NCBI RefSeq assembly: GCF_022803015.1
Contig: NZ_JAFKON010000001.1
Span: 806,001 to 870,000 of the forward strand
Direction of reading: 5' to 3'
Length of the DNA stretch: 64,000 nucleotides
From: Arthrobacter humicola
GTDB lineage: Bacteria; Actinomycetota; Actinomycetes; Actinomycetales; Micrococcaceae
Shown: one piece after another, positions 14,570 through 24,120 of the stretch
Position numbering within the stretch: position 1 is the first letter of the stretch
Layout: each line of letters begins with the position of its first letter
Program-made: the position numbers and the translations under genes
Notes under the pieces: model-generated
Database searches by the model: none
The model's input: only the letters and a program-made list of their open reading frames with translations
Told to the model about the DNA's origin: nothing

Positions 14570-15448
14570 ATGCAGATTCCGGCTCCATTTGACTACGTGC
14601 GCGCCACTACGGTGGAGAACGCCCTGGAACTTCTTGCCCGGTACGGACCCGACTCGCGGGTGGTGGCCGGGGGGCATAGCCTCCTGCCGATGATGAAGCT
14701 CCGCCTCTCCCGGCCCGAATGGCTGATCGACATCAATGACTTATACGAGCTCGATTTCATCCTCCGTGACGGCAACAAACTAAGGGTCGGCGCCCTGACG
14801 CGCCACACCACCCTGCTCGAGTCGGAGGAGGTGGCCGGGCTGTTCCCCATCGTGCGGGACGCCGAGCGGGTGATCGCCGACCCCGTGGTCCGCAACCGCG
14901 GCACCATTGGCGGCTCGCTTTGCCAGGCCGACCCGGCCGAGGACCTCTCCACGGTTTGCGGGGTCCTGGGCGCCGAGGCCGTGATCCGCGGACCAGGCGG
15001 CGAGCGCATCCTGTCCATGTCCGAGTTCCACCGCGGCCCCTATGAAACCGCGGTCGGGCACGATGAACTGCTCTGCGAACTCAGGTTCGGCATCCGCCCC
15101 CGGTCGGGCAGCGCCTATGAAAAGGTCGAACGCCGGGTCGGAGACTGGGCGGTCGGTGCCGCAGGTGCCGCCGTCACCCTCGCCGCGGACGGCACTGTCG
15201 ACGACGCCGCCGTCGGGCTCACCGCCCTGGGCCTTGACCACCCCCTGGCCGGGGCCGCCGCCGTGCTCCGCGGCCGGCATCCGGACGAGGAGCTGTTCGC
15301 CGAGGCGGGCAGGCTGGCAGCGGAGGCCTGCGATCCGGTGGCTGACCAGCGCGGCCCGGTCGACTACAAGCGGCATCTCGCCGATGAGCTCACCCAACGG
15401 GTACTGCGGCGGGCCTGTGCCCGCGCCGCCCAGATGCAGGAAGGCTGA
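14570..15448 (+). CDS. coxM: Carbon monoxide dehydrogenase medium (FAD) subunit
   Basis: This 292-residue flavoprotein passes electrons from the iron-sulfur subunit towards the quinone pool in aerobic CO dehydrogenase. The two FAD motifs of the CoxM family are present: AGGHS (residues 33-37, within VVAGGHSLLP) and TIGG (112-115, followed by SLCQADPAED). The C-terminal CO_deh_flav_C domain follows. ATG at 14570 has GTGAGGTAGGG upstream. It is the first gene of the M-S-L order that is typical for form I enzymes, and coxS begins five bases after its stop. Confidence 0.93.
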   Translation: MQIPAPFDYVRATTVENALELLARYGPDSRVVAGGHSLLPMMKLRLSRPEWLIDINDLYELDFILRDGNKLRVGALTRHTTLLESEEVAGLFPIVRDAERVIADPVVRNRGTIGGSLCQADPAEDLSTVCGVLGAEAVIRGPGGERILSMSEFHRGPYETAVGHDELLCELRFGIRPRSGSAYEKVERRVGDWAVGAAGAAVTLAADGTVDDAAVGLTALGLDHPLAGAAAVLRGRHPDEELFAEAGRLAAEACDPVADQRGPVDYKRHLADELTQRVLRRACARAAQMQEG

Positions 15449-15453
15449 AGCCG

Positions 15454-16005
15454 ATGCAGATCAGCATGACCGTGAACGGCGCCGACGTCACGAGCGAGAT
15501 TGAGCCCCGGGTGCTCCTGGTCCACTACATCCGCGAGGTCCTGGGCCTCACCGGTACTCACTGGGGATGCGACACAAGCAACTGCGGGACGTGCGTGGTC
15601 CTGATGGACGGACAGCCCGTGAAGTCCTGCACCGTCCTGGCCGCCATGGCCGCGGGGCACGACATCCGCACCGTCGAGGGGCTGGCCAGCGGCGGCACCC
15701 TCGACCCCGTCCAGCAGGGCTTCATGGAAGAGCACGGGCTGCAGTGTGGCTTCTGCACCCCGGGGATGATGCTCACGGCCCGCGCGCTGCTGGATAAGAA
15801 TCCGCACCCGGACGACGCCGAGATCCGGCAGGCCATTTCCGGGCAGATCTGCCGGTGCACGGGCTACGCGACGATTGTCCGCTCGGTGCAGTGGGCCGCC
15901 GCCCATCCGGCCGGCTCCGGCCTGGCCGACACGGCCGCCGCCGACACGGACACCGCCGTCCCGGATGTCGCGGCGGAGACAGAAGACACGGAGGTGAAGG
16001 CATGA
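15454..16005 (+). CDS. coxS: Carbon monoxide dehydrogenase small [2Fe-2S] subunit
   Basis: A 183-residue iron-sulfur subunit with two [2Fe-2S] clusters. Plant-ferredoxin-like cluster ligands are Cys39, 44, 47 and 59; the second cluster, in the all-helical domain, has Cys98, 101, 133 and 135 (CGFCTPGMM and CRCTGYATI). It moves electrons from the Mo-Cu site to FAD. A 30-residue acidic, Ala/Asp-rich tail after residue 150 goes beyond the usual family length. Its TGA overlaps the ATG of coxL. Confidence 0.95.
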   Translation: MQISMTVNGADVTSEIEPRVLLVHYIREVLGLTGTHWGCDTSNCGTCVVLMDGQPVKSCTVLAAMAAGHDIRTVEGLASGGTLDPVQQGFMEEHGLQCGFCTPGMMLTARALLDKNPHPDDAEIRQAISGQICRCTGYATIVRSVQWAAAHPAGSGLADTAAADTDTAVPDVAAETEDTEVKA

Positions 16006-22259: not shown

Positions 22260-22983
22260 CAGCACGTTCTCGGTGGTCGCACCGATAAGCCAGGTGTGGG
22301 ACACGCTGATGGACTTCGAACGGGTGGCCGGCTGCCTTCCGGGGGCCAGGATCCTGAACAAGCTCTCGGACGACGCCTACCAAGTGGGCATGACGGTAAA
22401 GCTCGGCCCGGTCACGATGCAATACAAGGGCCTGCTGAACGTCATTGAACGAAACGCCCCGGAACATCGTGCGGTCCTTGGCGGCAAGGCCCAGGAGACG
22501 CGCGGACAAGGCACTGCCGAGGCCACCGTCACCCTGGTGCTGGCCGAAGACGGAGCGGCCACACGGGGTTCCGTCAGCGCAGACCTGGCGCTGTCCGGCA
22601 AGGCAGCGGCCATGGGCAAGGGGGTGATCGGCAGCGTCACTGAGCAGATGATGTCGCTCTTCGCGAAAAATCTGCAGGCCATGCTCACAGAGGCAGCACC
22701 CCCTGCGGAGGAAGCCCCTGCCGGACCGACCCCTGCGGCGGTCCCCGGACCCACCCCGGCTCCGGTCCCCGCGTCGGCGCCGGAACCGGTCCCTGTGCCT
22801 GTCTCAGCGGCGGCTGCGCCCGACGGCAGCCTGGATGCGCTGAGCCTCGCCAAGGGAATCGCGGCGGAGCAATTGGCCAGCCCGGTGAAGGTCCTCGGCG
22901 TTATCGCCGTCGTGGCGTGCATCGCGTACTGGGCCGGCCGGCGTTCGGCGTTCCGGCTGCTCCGGCTGTGCGGCAGGCTCTGA
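22249..22983 (+). CDS. coxG: CoxG-like SRPBCC protein with C-terminal membrane anchor
   Basis: A 244-residue protein of the CoxG family. Residues 1 to about 150 form a SRPBCC/START-like domain (FSVVAPISQVWDTLMDFERVAGCLPGA). A Pro/Ala-rich linker of about 50 residues leads to one C-terminal membrane helix (VKVLGVIAVVACIAYWAG), then a short basic end. CoxG is thought to help recruit CO dehydrogenase to the membrane so it can feed the respiratory chain. The coupling to coxE and the tail anchor fit that role. Confidence 0.9.
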   Translation: MHIDSTFSVVAPISQVWDTLMDFERVAGCLPGARILNKLSDDAYQVGMTVKLGPVTMQYKGLLNVIERNAPEHRAVLGGKAQETRGQGTAEATVTLVLAEDGAATRGSVSADLALSGKAAAMGKGVIGSVTEQMMSLFAKNLQAMLTEAAPPAEEAPAGPTPAAVPGPTPAPVPASAPEPVPVPVSAAAAPDGSLDALSLAKGIAAEQLASPVKVLGVIAVVACIAYWAGRRSAFRLLRLCGRL

Positions 22984-22992
22984 GGAGCGCCG

Positions 22993-24120
22993 ATGCGTGA
23001 TGTCCTCGCGGCCATGTTGCCCGACTGGCGAAGCGGTGCCACGGCAGGCCTGGCCACCGTCGTGAGCACATTCCGATCTGCGCCCCGGCTCCCGGGGGCG
23101 GCGATGCTGGTGACGGCCGGCGGCGAGGCCGTGGGATCCGTCTCCGGCGGCTGCGTCGAGGGGGCCGTGTACGAGCTCGCCACCCAGGTCAAGGACGACG
23201 GCGTGCCGGCCCTGGTGCGCTACGGGATCAGCGATGACGATGCCTTTGCCGTGGGCCTGACCTGCGGTGGAATCATCGATATCTTCGTCGAACCTGTTTC
23301 CCGGCACCGCTTTGCCGAACTCGACGCCGTCGCGCAGGACATCACCGCCGGGCGCCGCGTGGGCGTCGCCACGATCATCGAACACCCGGATGCCGGCCGC
23401 GTGGGGCGGCACCTGGTTGTCAGGCCGGACGGTTGCGGGGGTGACCTGGGCTCGGACCGGACCAACCGCGCCGTCGGCGACGACACCCAGGGTCTTCTCG
23501 CCGCCGGCCGGACGGGCATCCTGAACTACGGTGTGGACGGCGAGCGGCTGGACACCGGCATGCGCGTCTTCTTTGCCAGCTATGCGCCGCCGCCGCGCAT
23601 GCTCGTTTTCGGCGCCATTGACTTCGCCGCGGCGCTGGCGCGGCTGGGCGCGTTCCTGGGCTACCGGGTGACCGTCTGTGATGCGCGGTCCGTATTCGCG
23701 ACGCCGGCGCGATTCCCCGACGCCGCCGAGGTGGTCAACGCGTGGCCACACCGGTACCTAAGCGAGCAGTTTGCCCAAGGCCTGCTGGATTCCAGGGCTG
23801 TGCTCTGCGTCCTGACCCACGACCCGAAGTTCGACATCCCCGTCCTTGAGGTGGCCCTGCGCGGCAGCCCCGTGGCCTTTATCGGCGCCATGGGATCCCG
23901 GCGCACGCACGAGGACAGGATGGCACGGCTTCGGCAGACGGGACTGACTGAGGCCGAGTTGTCCAGGCTTCACAGTCCTGTCGGCCTGGACCTGGGCGCC
24001 CGCACCCCGGAGGAAACGGCGGTGTCCATCGCGGCAGAGTTCATCGCCCAGCAGTGGAGCGGCAGCGGGGAGCCGTTGCGGCAGCTCGGCGAACGGATCC
24101 ACCACGACGAGCAGTTGTGA
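22993..24120 (+). CDS. coxI: XdhC/CoxI family maturation protein
   Basis: A 375-residue second XdhC-family protein. The N-terminal XdhC_CoxI domain shows PGAAMLVTAGGEAVGSVSGG then CVEGAV, and the C-terminal Rossmann-like domain (about 195-350) shows MLVFGAIDFAAALARLGAFL and AFIGAMGSRRTHEDRM. XdhC proteins bind Mo cofactor and help insert sulfur before transfer to the apo-enzyme. With the XdhC-YHS fusion upstream, the cluster has two, as CO dehydrogenase operons often do (CoxF and CoxI). The split of roles is unproven here. Confidence 0.88.
   Translation: MRDVLAAMLPDWRSGATAGLATVVSTFRSAPRLPGAAMLVTAGGEAVGSVSGGCVEGAVYELATQVKDDGVPALVRYGISDDDAFAVGLTCGGIIDIFVEPVSRHRFAELDAVAQDITAGRRVGVATIIEHPDAGRVGRHLVVRPDGCGGDLGSDRTNRAVGDDTQGLLAAGRTGILNYGVDGERLDTGMRVFFASYAPPPRMLVFGAIDFAAALARLGAFLGYRVTVCDARSVFATPARFPDAAEVVNAWPHRYLSEQFAQGLLDSRAVLCVLTHDPKFDIPVLEVALRGSPVAFIGAMGSRRTHEDRMARLRQTGLTEAELSRLHSPVGLDLGARTPEETAVSIAAEFIAQQWSGSGEPLRQLGERIHHDEQL

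What the first reader, a model, noticed from the sequence alone, without database searches (positions are those of the whole stretch)
14570..24120. Complete form I aerobic CO dehydrogenase cluster
The motif AYACSFR in the large subunit matches the form I signature AYXCSFR, and coxM-S-L, two XdhC proteins, MocA-like, CoxD, CoxE and CoxG follow with short gaps or overlaps. This predicts that the organism oxidises atmospheric or metabolic CO. The membrane signalling genes coxB/C/H/K known from Oligotropha are absent.
Basis: partly seen in the sequence, partly recalled or inferred. Interest (0 to 1): 0.7.

Follow-up and report, generated by a model that had tools for sequence, protein, structure and literature searches.

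The report
CO-oxidation genes with copper-loading fusion
The genes are a standard bacterial set for burning carbon monoxide, but one of the enzyme's assembly helpers carries an overlooked extra metal-binding domain that recurs with this enzyme across bacteria and archaea and may be how it receives its copper.

Summary
In detail: 14570-24120 encodes coxM-S-L, an XdhC, a MocA-like protein, CoxD, CoxE, CoxG and a second XdhC, tightly packed. CoxL scores 1368 bits on the aerobic CO-dehydrogenase model (cut-off 991), keeps the copper-ligand Cys and lies deep inside form I in a tree. The genome has no RuBisCO and no MHYT protein. As a form I cox cluster it is ordinary.

In an Actinomycetota sample chosen by CoxL alone, 30 of 31 readable CoxF genes by form I coxL carry YHS; none of 40 lower-scoring (mostly form II) loci has a CoxF-type gene. 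Two of two Betaproteobacteria have it; six of six Alphaproteobacteria, including the model Oligotropha, do not. Of 25 mycobacterial CoxF genes without YHS, 15 end in a His/Cys-rich tail. Oligotropha CoxF is the published copper supplier. I propose that YHS is the ancestral copper-loading module of form I CO dehydrogenase. Copper binding was not tested; some CoxF proteins have neither module.

The parts
13449..14444 (-). LysR-type regulator, CutR-like, divergent from coxM
   Evidence: PF00126 and PF03466; best PDB matches 9vvu/9vvt 155 bits, next 56 bits
14449..14468 (.). predicted operator: perfect inverted repeat TCATAA-N8-TTATGA (T-n12-A)
   Evidence: core TCATAACCTTTCGCTTAT invariant in 6 of 6 aligned regions (window and five relatives chosen for their divergent LysR gene), the whole repeat in 5 of 6; only exact site in the genome
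14570..15448 (+). coxM, FAD subunit
   Evidence: PF00941, PF03450; AGGHS and TIGGS motifs
15454..16005 (+). coxS, iron-sulfur subunit
   Evidence: PF01799, PF00111; eight Cys matching those of Oligotropha CoxS in number and nearly in spacing
16002..18395 (+). coxL, form I catalytic subunit
   Evidence: TIGR02416 1367.8 bits; Q231, C379, E750 align with Oligotropha Q240, C388, E763; tree
18395..19390 (+). CoxF-type XdhC maturase fused to a C-terminal YHS domain
   Evidence: PF02625, PF13478, PF04945; only YHS match in the genome
19247..19387 (+). YHS domain, presumed ligands D286, C289, C312, C316
   Evidence: the four residues are invariant in the 63 rows of alignment A2 (eight of 70 named homologues were left out of it, five of them with other spacing or cut ends); confident fold, linker not
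19374..20024 (+). MocA-like molybdenum cofactor cytidylyltransferase
   Evidence: PF12804; TIGR03310 118 bits, below its cut-off 186
20021..20944 (+). coxD, AAA+ ATPase
   Evidence: PF07728; Walker A GEAGVGKT and Walker B
20883..22259 (+). coxE, VWA protein (start may be 20937)
   Evidence: PF05762 187.9 bits; MIDAS DVSGS
22249..22983 (+). coxG: COXG domain, proline-rich linker, C-terminal hydrophobic segment
   Evidence: PF06240; PDB 8uds CoxG 104.5 bits; linker and hydrophobic segment read by eye
22993..24120 (+). second XdhC (CoxI-like by size and place), no YHS
   Evidence: PF02625, PF13478

Best explanation
This is a complete structural and maturation operon for a form I Mo-Cu CO dehydrogenase, next to a CutR-like regulator, that would let a RuBisCO-less actinobacterium (nearest named kin: Arthrobacter) draw energy from trace CO. 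Shown by sequence: the subunits, conserved active-site residues, the maturation genes, a conserved inverted repeat in the promoter region. The CoxF counterpart is an XdhC-YHS fusion. Inferred mechanism: the YHS domain, on a flexible linker, holds one copper ion through Asp286, Cys289, Cys312 and Cys316; the XdhC domain docks on apo-CO dehydrogenase whose Mo has been sulfurated with the help of CoxD; copper is handed, with CoxE, to the Mo-bound sulfide and Cys379 of CoxL. CoxG then links the finished enzyme to the quinone pool. The fusion is probably the ancestral form of the copper-inserting factor; Alphaproteobacteria, where the system was worked out, lost it.
For: Cluster and form I. Fusion. 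Same architecture in the same cluster as form I coxL in Thermomicrobium and Natronorubrum (over the Pfam cut-off) and in Deinococcus (29.1 against 30.3 bits). Actinomycetota sample chosen by CoxL score alone: 38 form I sites besides the window; 5 not assessable, 2 without CoxF in reach, YHS in 30 of the other 31, all 30 with the exact ligand spacing and with XdhC starting within about 100 bases of the coxL match. By genome, from the listed matches: XdhC-YHS in 34 of 37 genomes over the form I cut-off and in 7 of 209 others, Fisher p 3e-31; of the 7, three (G070, G178, G214) hold coxL fragments that look form I by score per residue, in two (G157, G181) the gene starts about 640 bases from a contig's first base, two (G177, G275) are degenerate or partial. 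CoxI-type XdhC hits: 1 of 87 with YHS, and that one (L112) is a CoxF-type gene broken over two frames. None of 40 lower-scoring, mostly form II, loci has a CoxF-type hit. Ligand spacing equals that of the M. phlei cyclase YHS, which responds to Cu and not to six other ions tested (PMC4626032, abstract and passages). Oligotropha CoxF is the proposed copper supplier (PMC4240915, abstract and passages). Of five genomes checked where the fusion has no full coxL near it, four hold a form I coxL elsewhere. 15 of 25 YHS-less mycobacterial CoxF genes end in a His/Cys-rich tail.
Against: No copper binding was measured. CoxF of six of six Alphaproteobacteria lacks YHS, and 9 of 24 intact YHS-less mycobacterial CoxF genes have no His/Cys tail either, among them the locus closest to the solved enzyme 8uem (L207, 97.5% over 408 residues); so the module is dispensable in some lineages. 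The ligand set is not universal: exact spacing in 104 of 115 XdhC-YHS frames; both Betaproteobacteria have Asn for Asp; Deinococcus has lost part of the set. In one myxobacterial MAG contig (L084) the only full coxL near the fusion is form II, though a second, cut coxM/coxS pair follows the fusion; in L080 and L081 no cox gene is near it, and in one of five genomes checked (G302) no form I coxL was found. YHS could be structural, a sulfur carrier or a docking element. Most counts come from one phylum; the named-genome set was selected with a YHS motif among others and gives no rates.
Confidence: 0.6

Rival explanations
1. An ordinary form I cox operon in which the YHS domain is only a structural or docking element (for example a zinc-stabilised surface for CoxD, CoxE or CoxL) and copper arrives by another route.
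For: A YHS-like stretch occurs in phenol hydroxylase (weak match), for which copper has not been implicated (PMC4626032, passage); YHS is absent from CoxF of all six Alphaproteobacteria read and from 25 of 66 mycobacterial loci.
Against: The four presumed ligands are invariant in the 63 rows of A2 while mean column identity is 34% (the Asp and first Cys lie in a motif used for the search, the last two Cys do not; eight homologues were left out of A2); 30 of 30 in the sample not selected on YHS keep the exact spacing; a His/Cys tail often stands where YHS is gone.
Confidence: 0.2
2. The YHS cysteines carry sulfur, not copper: the fusion delivers persulfide sulfur to the Mo centre.
For: XdhC proteins are linked to protecting or stabilising sulfurated Moco (PMC4240915, passages; PMC2997495, abstract start in a listing); three conserved cysteines would suit a sulfur relay.
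Against: Xanthine dehydrogenase needs sulfurated Moco too, yet CoxI-type XdhC hits carried no YHS apart from one broken CoxF-type gene (1 of 87). coxE and coxF mutants of Oligotropha contained sulfurated Mo sites and were concluded to lack copper insertion. The replacement tails are His-rich, which suits copper better than sulfur.
Confidence: 0.12
3. The YHS domain is a copper sensor that gates maturation: it lets XdhC act only when copper is available, without handing over the ion itself.
For: The M. phlei cyclase YHS domain was proposed to be a copper sensor module (PMC4626032, abstract).
Against: Nothing here separates sensing from delivery; the fusion to the factor proposed to supply copper favours delivery.
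Confidence: 0.12

Closest known systems
Oligotropha (Afipia) carboxidovorans coxBCMSLDEFGHIK on pHCG3 (L033)
   Same: coxM, S, L, D, E, two XdhC genes (CoxF, CoxI) and CoxG; CoxL 458 of 793 aligned residues identical
   Different: No MHYT proteins in the window's genome; the CoxF counterpart follows coxL directly and carries YHS, while Oligotropha CoxF follows CoxE and has none; MocA-like gene inside the operon; the residue at Oligotropha Arg387 is Ala
Mycobacterial form I CO dehydrogenase and CutR regulon (PDB 8uem, taken to be M. smegmatis; strain JC1, PMC12609908, abstract and passages)
   Same: CoxL best PDB match (1402 bits); CoxG match 8uds; divergent LysR gene and a T-n12-A inverted repeat upstream of the medium-subunit gene
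   Different: Half-sites ATAA/TTAT here, TTAAG/CTTAA in JC1; YHS on CoxF is kept in 41 of 66 mycobacterial loci read
YHS domain of Mycobacterium phlei adenylyl cyclase (PMC4626032, abstract and passages)
   Same: Asp and three Cys with the same spacing (D178, C181, C204, C208 there; D286, C289, C312, C316 here); C-terminal, on a linker
   Different: Attached to a cyclase that it activates; here attached to an XdhC maturase

Membership tests
form I aerobic CO dehydrogenase | CoxL motif AYXCSFR with the Cu-ligand Cys | tested here: met
   AYACSFR at 376-382, C379 aligned to Oligotropha C388; the role of C388 is recalled
form I aerobic CO dehydrogenase | CoxL clusters with form I, apart from form II | tested here: met
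   FastTree tree of 122 form I and 10 form II rows, split with local support 100; TIGR02416 1367.8 bits
form I aerobic CO dehydrogenase | M, S and L subunits with FAD, 2Fe-2S and Mo domains | tested here: met
form I aerobic CO dehydrogenase | coxD, coxE and coxF maturation genes | tested here: met
   a model of the XdhC part of this family scores Oligotropha CoxF 152.7 bits and CoxI 42.8
form I aerobic CO dehydrogenase | CO oxidation activity | not testable with these tools
   needs gas uptake measurement
Oligotropha-type cluster with coxB/C/H/K | MHYT membrane proteins | tested here: not met
   PF03707: no match in the genome; CoxB and CoxK not sought genome-wide
copper-binding YHS domain | Pfam YHS above the curated cut-off | tested here: met
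   42.5 bits, cut-off 30.3
copper-binding YHS domain | Asp plus three Cys in the spacing of the M. phlei cyclase | tested here: met
copper-binding YHS domain | binds copper | not testable with these tools
   needs purified protein
CutR-type LysR regulator | divergent gene, T-n12-A inverted repeat, sequence nearest CutR | tested here: inconclusive
   first two met; nearest solved proteins 9vvt and 9vvu are listed only as LysR family regulator, that they are CutR is inferred
carboxydotroph (autotrophic growth on CO) | RuBisCO | tested here: not met
   PF00016: no match in the genome

The most novel reading that the evidence does not exclude
The XdhC-YHS protein is the dedicated copper-loading factor of form I CO dehydrogenase and the ancestral state of CoxF across bacteria and archaea. 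The model organism Oligotropha belongs to a lineage that lost the module, which is why the copper route has stayed obscure; mycobacteria lost it repeatedly and often replaced it with a His/Cys-rich tail.
Probability: 0.45. Interest if true: 0.7.

Novelty: new variant of a known kind. Interest (0 to 1): 0.5.

Why it matters
How copper reaches the Mo-Cu centre of CO dehydrogenase has been described mainly from mutants of one alphaproteobacterium. If the YHS domain is the copper carrier, the step becomes testable with a 50-residue domain, natural losses and natural replacements, in an enzyme that removes atmospheric CO. The fusion may also serve as a sequence marker for copper-containing form I systems.

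Tried and rejected
Rejected: that the cluster is form II or a xanthine dehydrogenase. Rejected: that the second Mo-binding protein of the genome (contig 55) is another CO dehydrogenase; it scores 277 bits against a cut-off of 991. No clean result: whether MHYT proteins and YHS exclude each other. All six alphaproteobacterial loci without YHS have CoxC-like hits (one of them weak, 43.4 bits), but two gammaproteobacterial loci and one betaproteobacterial locus with YHS have weak ones (best 32.7-45.7 bits), and the YHS-less actinobacterial loci of that set have none. The published RGD contact between CoxF and CoxE does not look general: RGD occurs in 10 of 118 CoxF-type entries (entries are counted per coxL site, so a locus can count twice). 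A Foldseek search with the predicted model put XdhC structures first and matched no YHS fold among the 50 rows listed of 1684. From recall only: M. tuberculosis Rv0372c is probably also YHS-less.

Counting choices. One search left out CoxL hits spanning under about 690 residues and scored YHS only where CoxF was not cut by a contig end: of 38 phylum sites 5 were set aside and 2 (L152, L154) had no CoxF in reach. The 87 CoxI-type entries are hits per reading frame; a gene split over two frames counts twice. The named set gave 54 form I sites with YHS, 6 without, 2 not assessable, but was selected partly on a YHS motif. L112 was scored as lacking YHS, but its YHS lies in the next frame of a broken gene. 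Alignment A2 holds the window and 62 of the 70 named homologues; left out were L040, L049, L064, L073, L100, L106, L107 and L112, of which L064, L073, L100, L106 and L107 depart from the exact spacing or are cut; the reference, relatives' and phylum loci are not in it. Of ten loci with the fusion but no full coxL, five were checked genome-wide; the others were L051, L084, L090, L094 and L107, of which L090 and L107 hold parts of coxL and L051 holds coxD and coxE. The list of matches is cut at about E 3e-24; the YHS-reaching matches were taken from the listed part. His/Cys tails were counted by eye. L216 is one of the 25 YHS-less genes but is a 153-residue frame. Of 70 mycobacterial form I genomes 66 were fetched; three were already held and one, with a partial coxL, was left out. 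Both trees are FastTree trees without bootstrap; many inner branches of the mycobacterial one are weak, so its 9 changes of state, and the 8 of the wide tree (which counts L112 as a loss), are rough.

Literature: no paper in the held library has both YHS and XdhC; of 13 papers two selenoprotein papers hold both YHS domain and CO dehydrogenase (listing only); none of 7 holds YHS; YHS domain with molybdenum gave the same two; CoxF with copper chaperone: one CoxD paper and three on other topics. Only open-licence PMC papers are held, so this is no proof of absence. The quinone role of CoxG is cited in PMC13240472 (passages) to Kropp et al. 2025, which I did not see.

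Full report
What is there. The stretch 14570-24120 holds nine genes on the + strand with overlaps or gaps under 10 bases: coxM, coxS, coxL, an XdhC gene, a MocA-like gene, coxD, coxE, coxG and a second XdhC gene. Each clears a curated Pfam cut-off; of the NCBIfam models only the CoxL one is cleared. CoxL reaches 1367.8 bits on TIGR02416 (cut-off 991.15). Aligned to Oligotropha CoxL (458 of 793 residues identical) it keeps the residues at 240, 388 and 763, which I recall as active-site positions, and has Ala where Oligotropha has Arg387. In a FastTree tree of 122 form I and 10 form II CoxL proteins the two forms split with local support 100; the window lies in a group of 11 rows whose named members are Arthrobacter, nearest to an unnamed genus relative at 98% identity. 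Its best solved relative is 8uem, a CoxL (1402 bits), which I take to be the M. smegmatis enzyme.

Setting. Of 59 genomes, ten passed the form I cut-off, eight of them among the 37 of the window's genus (own genome included), so the trait is patchy in the genus. Six of those eight (window included) share the full set with the divergent LysR gene; two (L024, L028) show only coxM, S, L, XdhC-YHS, D and E in the stretch read. The genome has a NiFe hydrogenase large-subunit gene, no RuBisCO and no MHYT protein. This fits a trace-gas scavenger such as M. smegmatis, for which atmospheric CO oxidation by a form I enzyme was shown genetically (PMC6794299, passages). The LysR protein matches two solved LysR entries far better than any other (155 against 56 bits), probably the CutR structures. 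Between it and coxM lies a perfect inverted repeat with a T-n12-A core. Its first 18 bases are invariant in the window and five relatives, the whole repeat in five of these six, and the exact repeat occurs once in the genome. CutR binds a T-n12-A repeat upstream of the medium-subunit gene (PMC12609908, passages).

The overlooked part. The XdhC directly after coxL ends in a YHS domain (PF04945), the only one found in the genome. Its XdhC part is nearer to Oligotropha CoxF than to CoxI (152.7 against 42.8 bits for a model of this family's XdhC part). AlphaFold gives mean pLDDT 90.5, with the YHS domain (283-330) confident and the linker (about 250-280) not. The YHS holds D286, C289, C312 and C316. 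The same D-x2-C-x22-C-x3-C spacing is found in the M. phlei adenylyl cyclase, whose YHS domain makes the enzyme respond to Cu(II) but not to Zn, Fe(II), Fe(III), Cr, Co or Ni (PMC4626032, abstract and passages). The exact pattern stands in 104 of the 115 XdhC-YHS frames read; the exceptions include different spacing, cut or masked sequence, Asn for Asp in both Betaproteobacteria and loss of ligands in Deinococcus. In all 4.27 million translated residues of those loci the pattern occurs 112 times, so it is rare outside these proteins. In the 63-row alignment A2 the four residues are invariant while mean column identity is 34%; the Asp and first Cys belong to a motif used to find the named homologues, the other two Cys do not, and eight homologues were left out.

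How tightly it tracks form I. To avoid selection on YHS, I took 246 Actinomycetota genomes by CoxL score alone and read the neighbourhoods of the 38 form I sites besides the window. Five could not be assessed because of contig ends, two had no CoxF in reach, and 30 of the remaining 31 carried YHS on the CoxF next to coxL, all 30 with the exact ligand spacing. None of 40 lower-scoring, mostly form II, loci had a CoxF-type hit, and 87 CoxI-type XdhC hits gave one YHS call, a CoxF-type gene broken over two frames. A search of the same 246 genomes with the XdhC-YHS profile gives, from the listed matches, 34 of 37 form I genomes and 7 of 209 others. Of the three form I genomes without it, two have CoxF cut by a contig end. 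Of the seven others, three (G070, G178, G214) hold coxL fragments that look form I by score per residue, in two (G157, G181) the gene starts about 640 bases into a contig, and two are degenerate or partial. The fusion also occurs in the same cluster as form I coxL in Thermomicrobium and Natronorubrum and, below the Pfam cut-off, in Deinococcus, in two of two Betaproteobacteria, and in Chloroflexi, Meiothermus, Acidobacteria and Gammaproteobacteria (that set was selected partly on YHS). It is absent in six of six Alphaproteobacteria, which form one clade.

Results against. In a myxobacterial contig (L084) the only full coxL near the fusion is form II, on the other strand, although coxM and coxS of a second, cut cluster follow the fusion. 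In L080 and L081 no cox gene is near the fusion. Of five such genomes checked, four hold a form I coxL elsewhere and one (G302) does not.

Losses. In 66 mycobacterial loci 41 have YHS and 25 do not. Of these 25, one is a cut gene and 15 end in a short His/Cys-rich tail such as EHHCDAHGH, CHGHG or HHCH. Nine of the 25 have five or more His plus Cys in the last 20 residues, against 1.9% of 891 long frames from the same loci, coding or not. The tree, weakly supported, asks for 9 changes between YHS and no YHS and places the tails in several groups. Nine intact genes have neither module, among them L207, the locus nearest to 8uem. A module that is lost but often replaced by another metal-binding segment suggests a metal-handling role, helpful rather than indispensable.

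Mechanism. In Oligotropha, coxE and coxF mutants make CO dehydrogenase with sulfurated Mo sites but fail in copper insertion, and CoxF was proposed to supply copper, with a putative binding motif and a phytase step (PMC4240915, abstract and passages); CoxD, E and F together were called a possible Cu-chelatase (PMC3471820, passages). I propose that in most form I systems the copper site of CoxF is the YHS domain. Shown here: the fusion, its ligand set, its association with form I CoxL. Inferred: copper binding, transfer to the Mo-S-Cu-Cys site, and ancestry.

Verdict. The cluster is a new member of a well-known kind. The YHS-bearing CoxF is a widespread variant that I did not find described in the papers searched.

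Noticed in passing
window 16002-18395, CoxL residue 378: The position of Oligotropha Arg387 is Ala: AYACSFR in 70 of 122 form I sites read, AYRCSFR in 49, SYRCSFR in 3 (the set is rich in Actinomycetota).
   Followed up: partly
L024 and L028 (unnamed genus relatives): A second cox subtype in the genus lacks LysR, MocA, CoxG and the second XdhC in the stretch read.
   Followed up: no
window 10473-12821: A molybdopterin oxidoreductase (formate dehydrogenase-like) lies just upstream and stays near the cox genes in four relatives, L025, L027, L029 and L030.
   Followed up: partly
window 5563-6879: Protein of the erythromycin esterase family (PF05139, 384.7 bits); function not examined.
   Followed up: no
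window 13015-13332: Small DUF6457 protein (40.3 bits) between the molybdopterin oxidoreductase and the LysR gene.
   Followed up: no
L037:13574-14635 (Deinococcus sp. AJ005): YHS-like domain on CoxF with ligand residues lost; a natural test of whether the fold matters without the metal site.
   Followed up: no
L200 and L204 (Paraburkholderia, Caballeronia): The first presumed ligand of the YHS domain is Asn instead of Asp in both.
   Followed up: no
genome G000, contig 33, 468987-470543: NiFe hydrogenase large-subunit gene, so the strain may scavenge H2 as well as CO.
   Followed up: no
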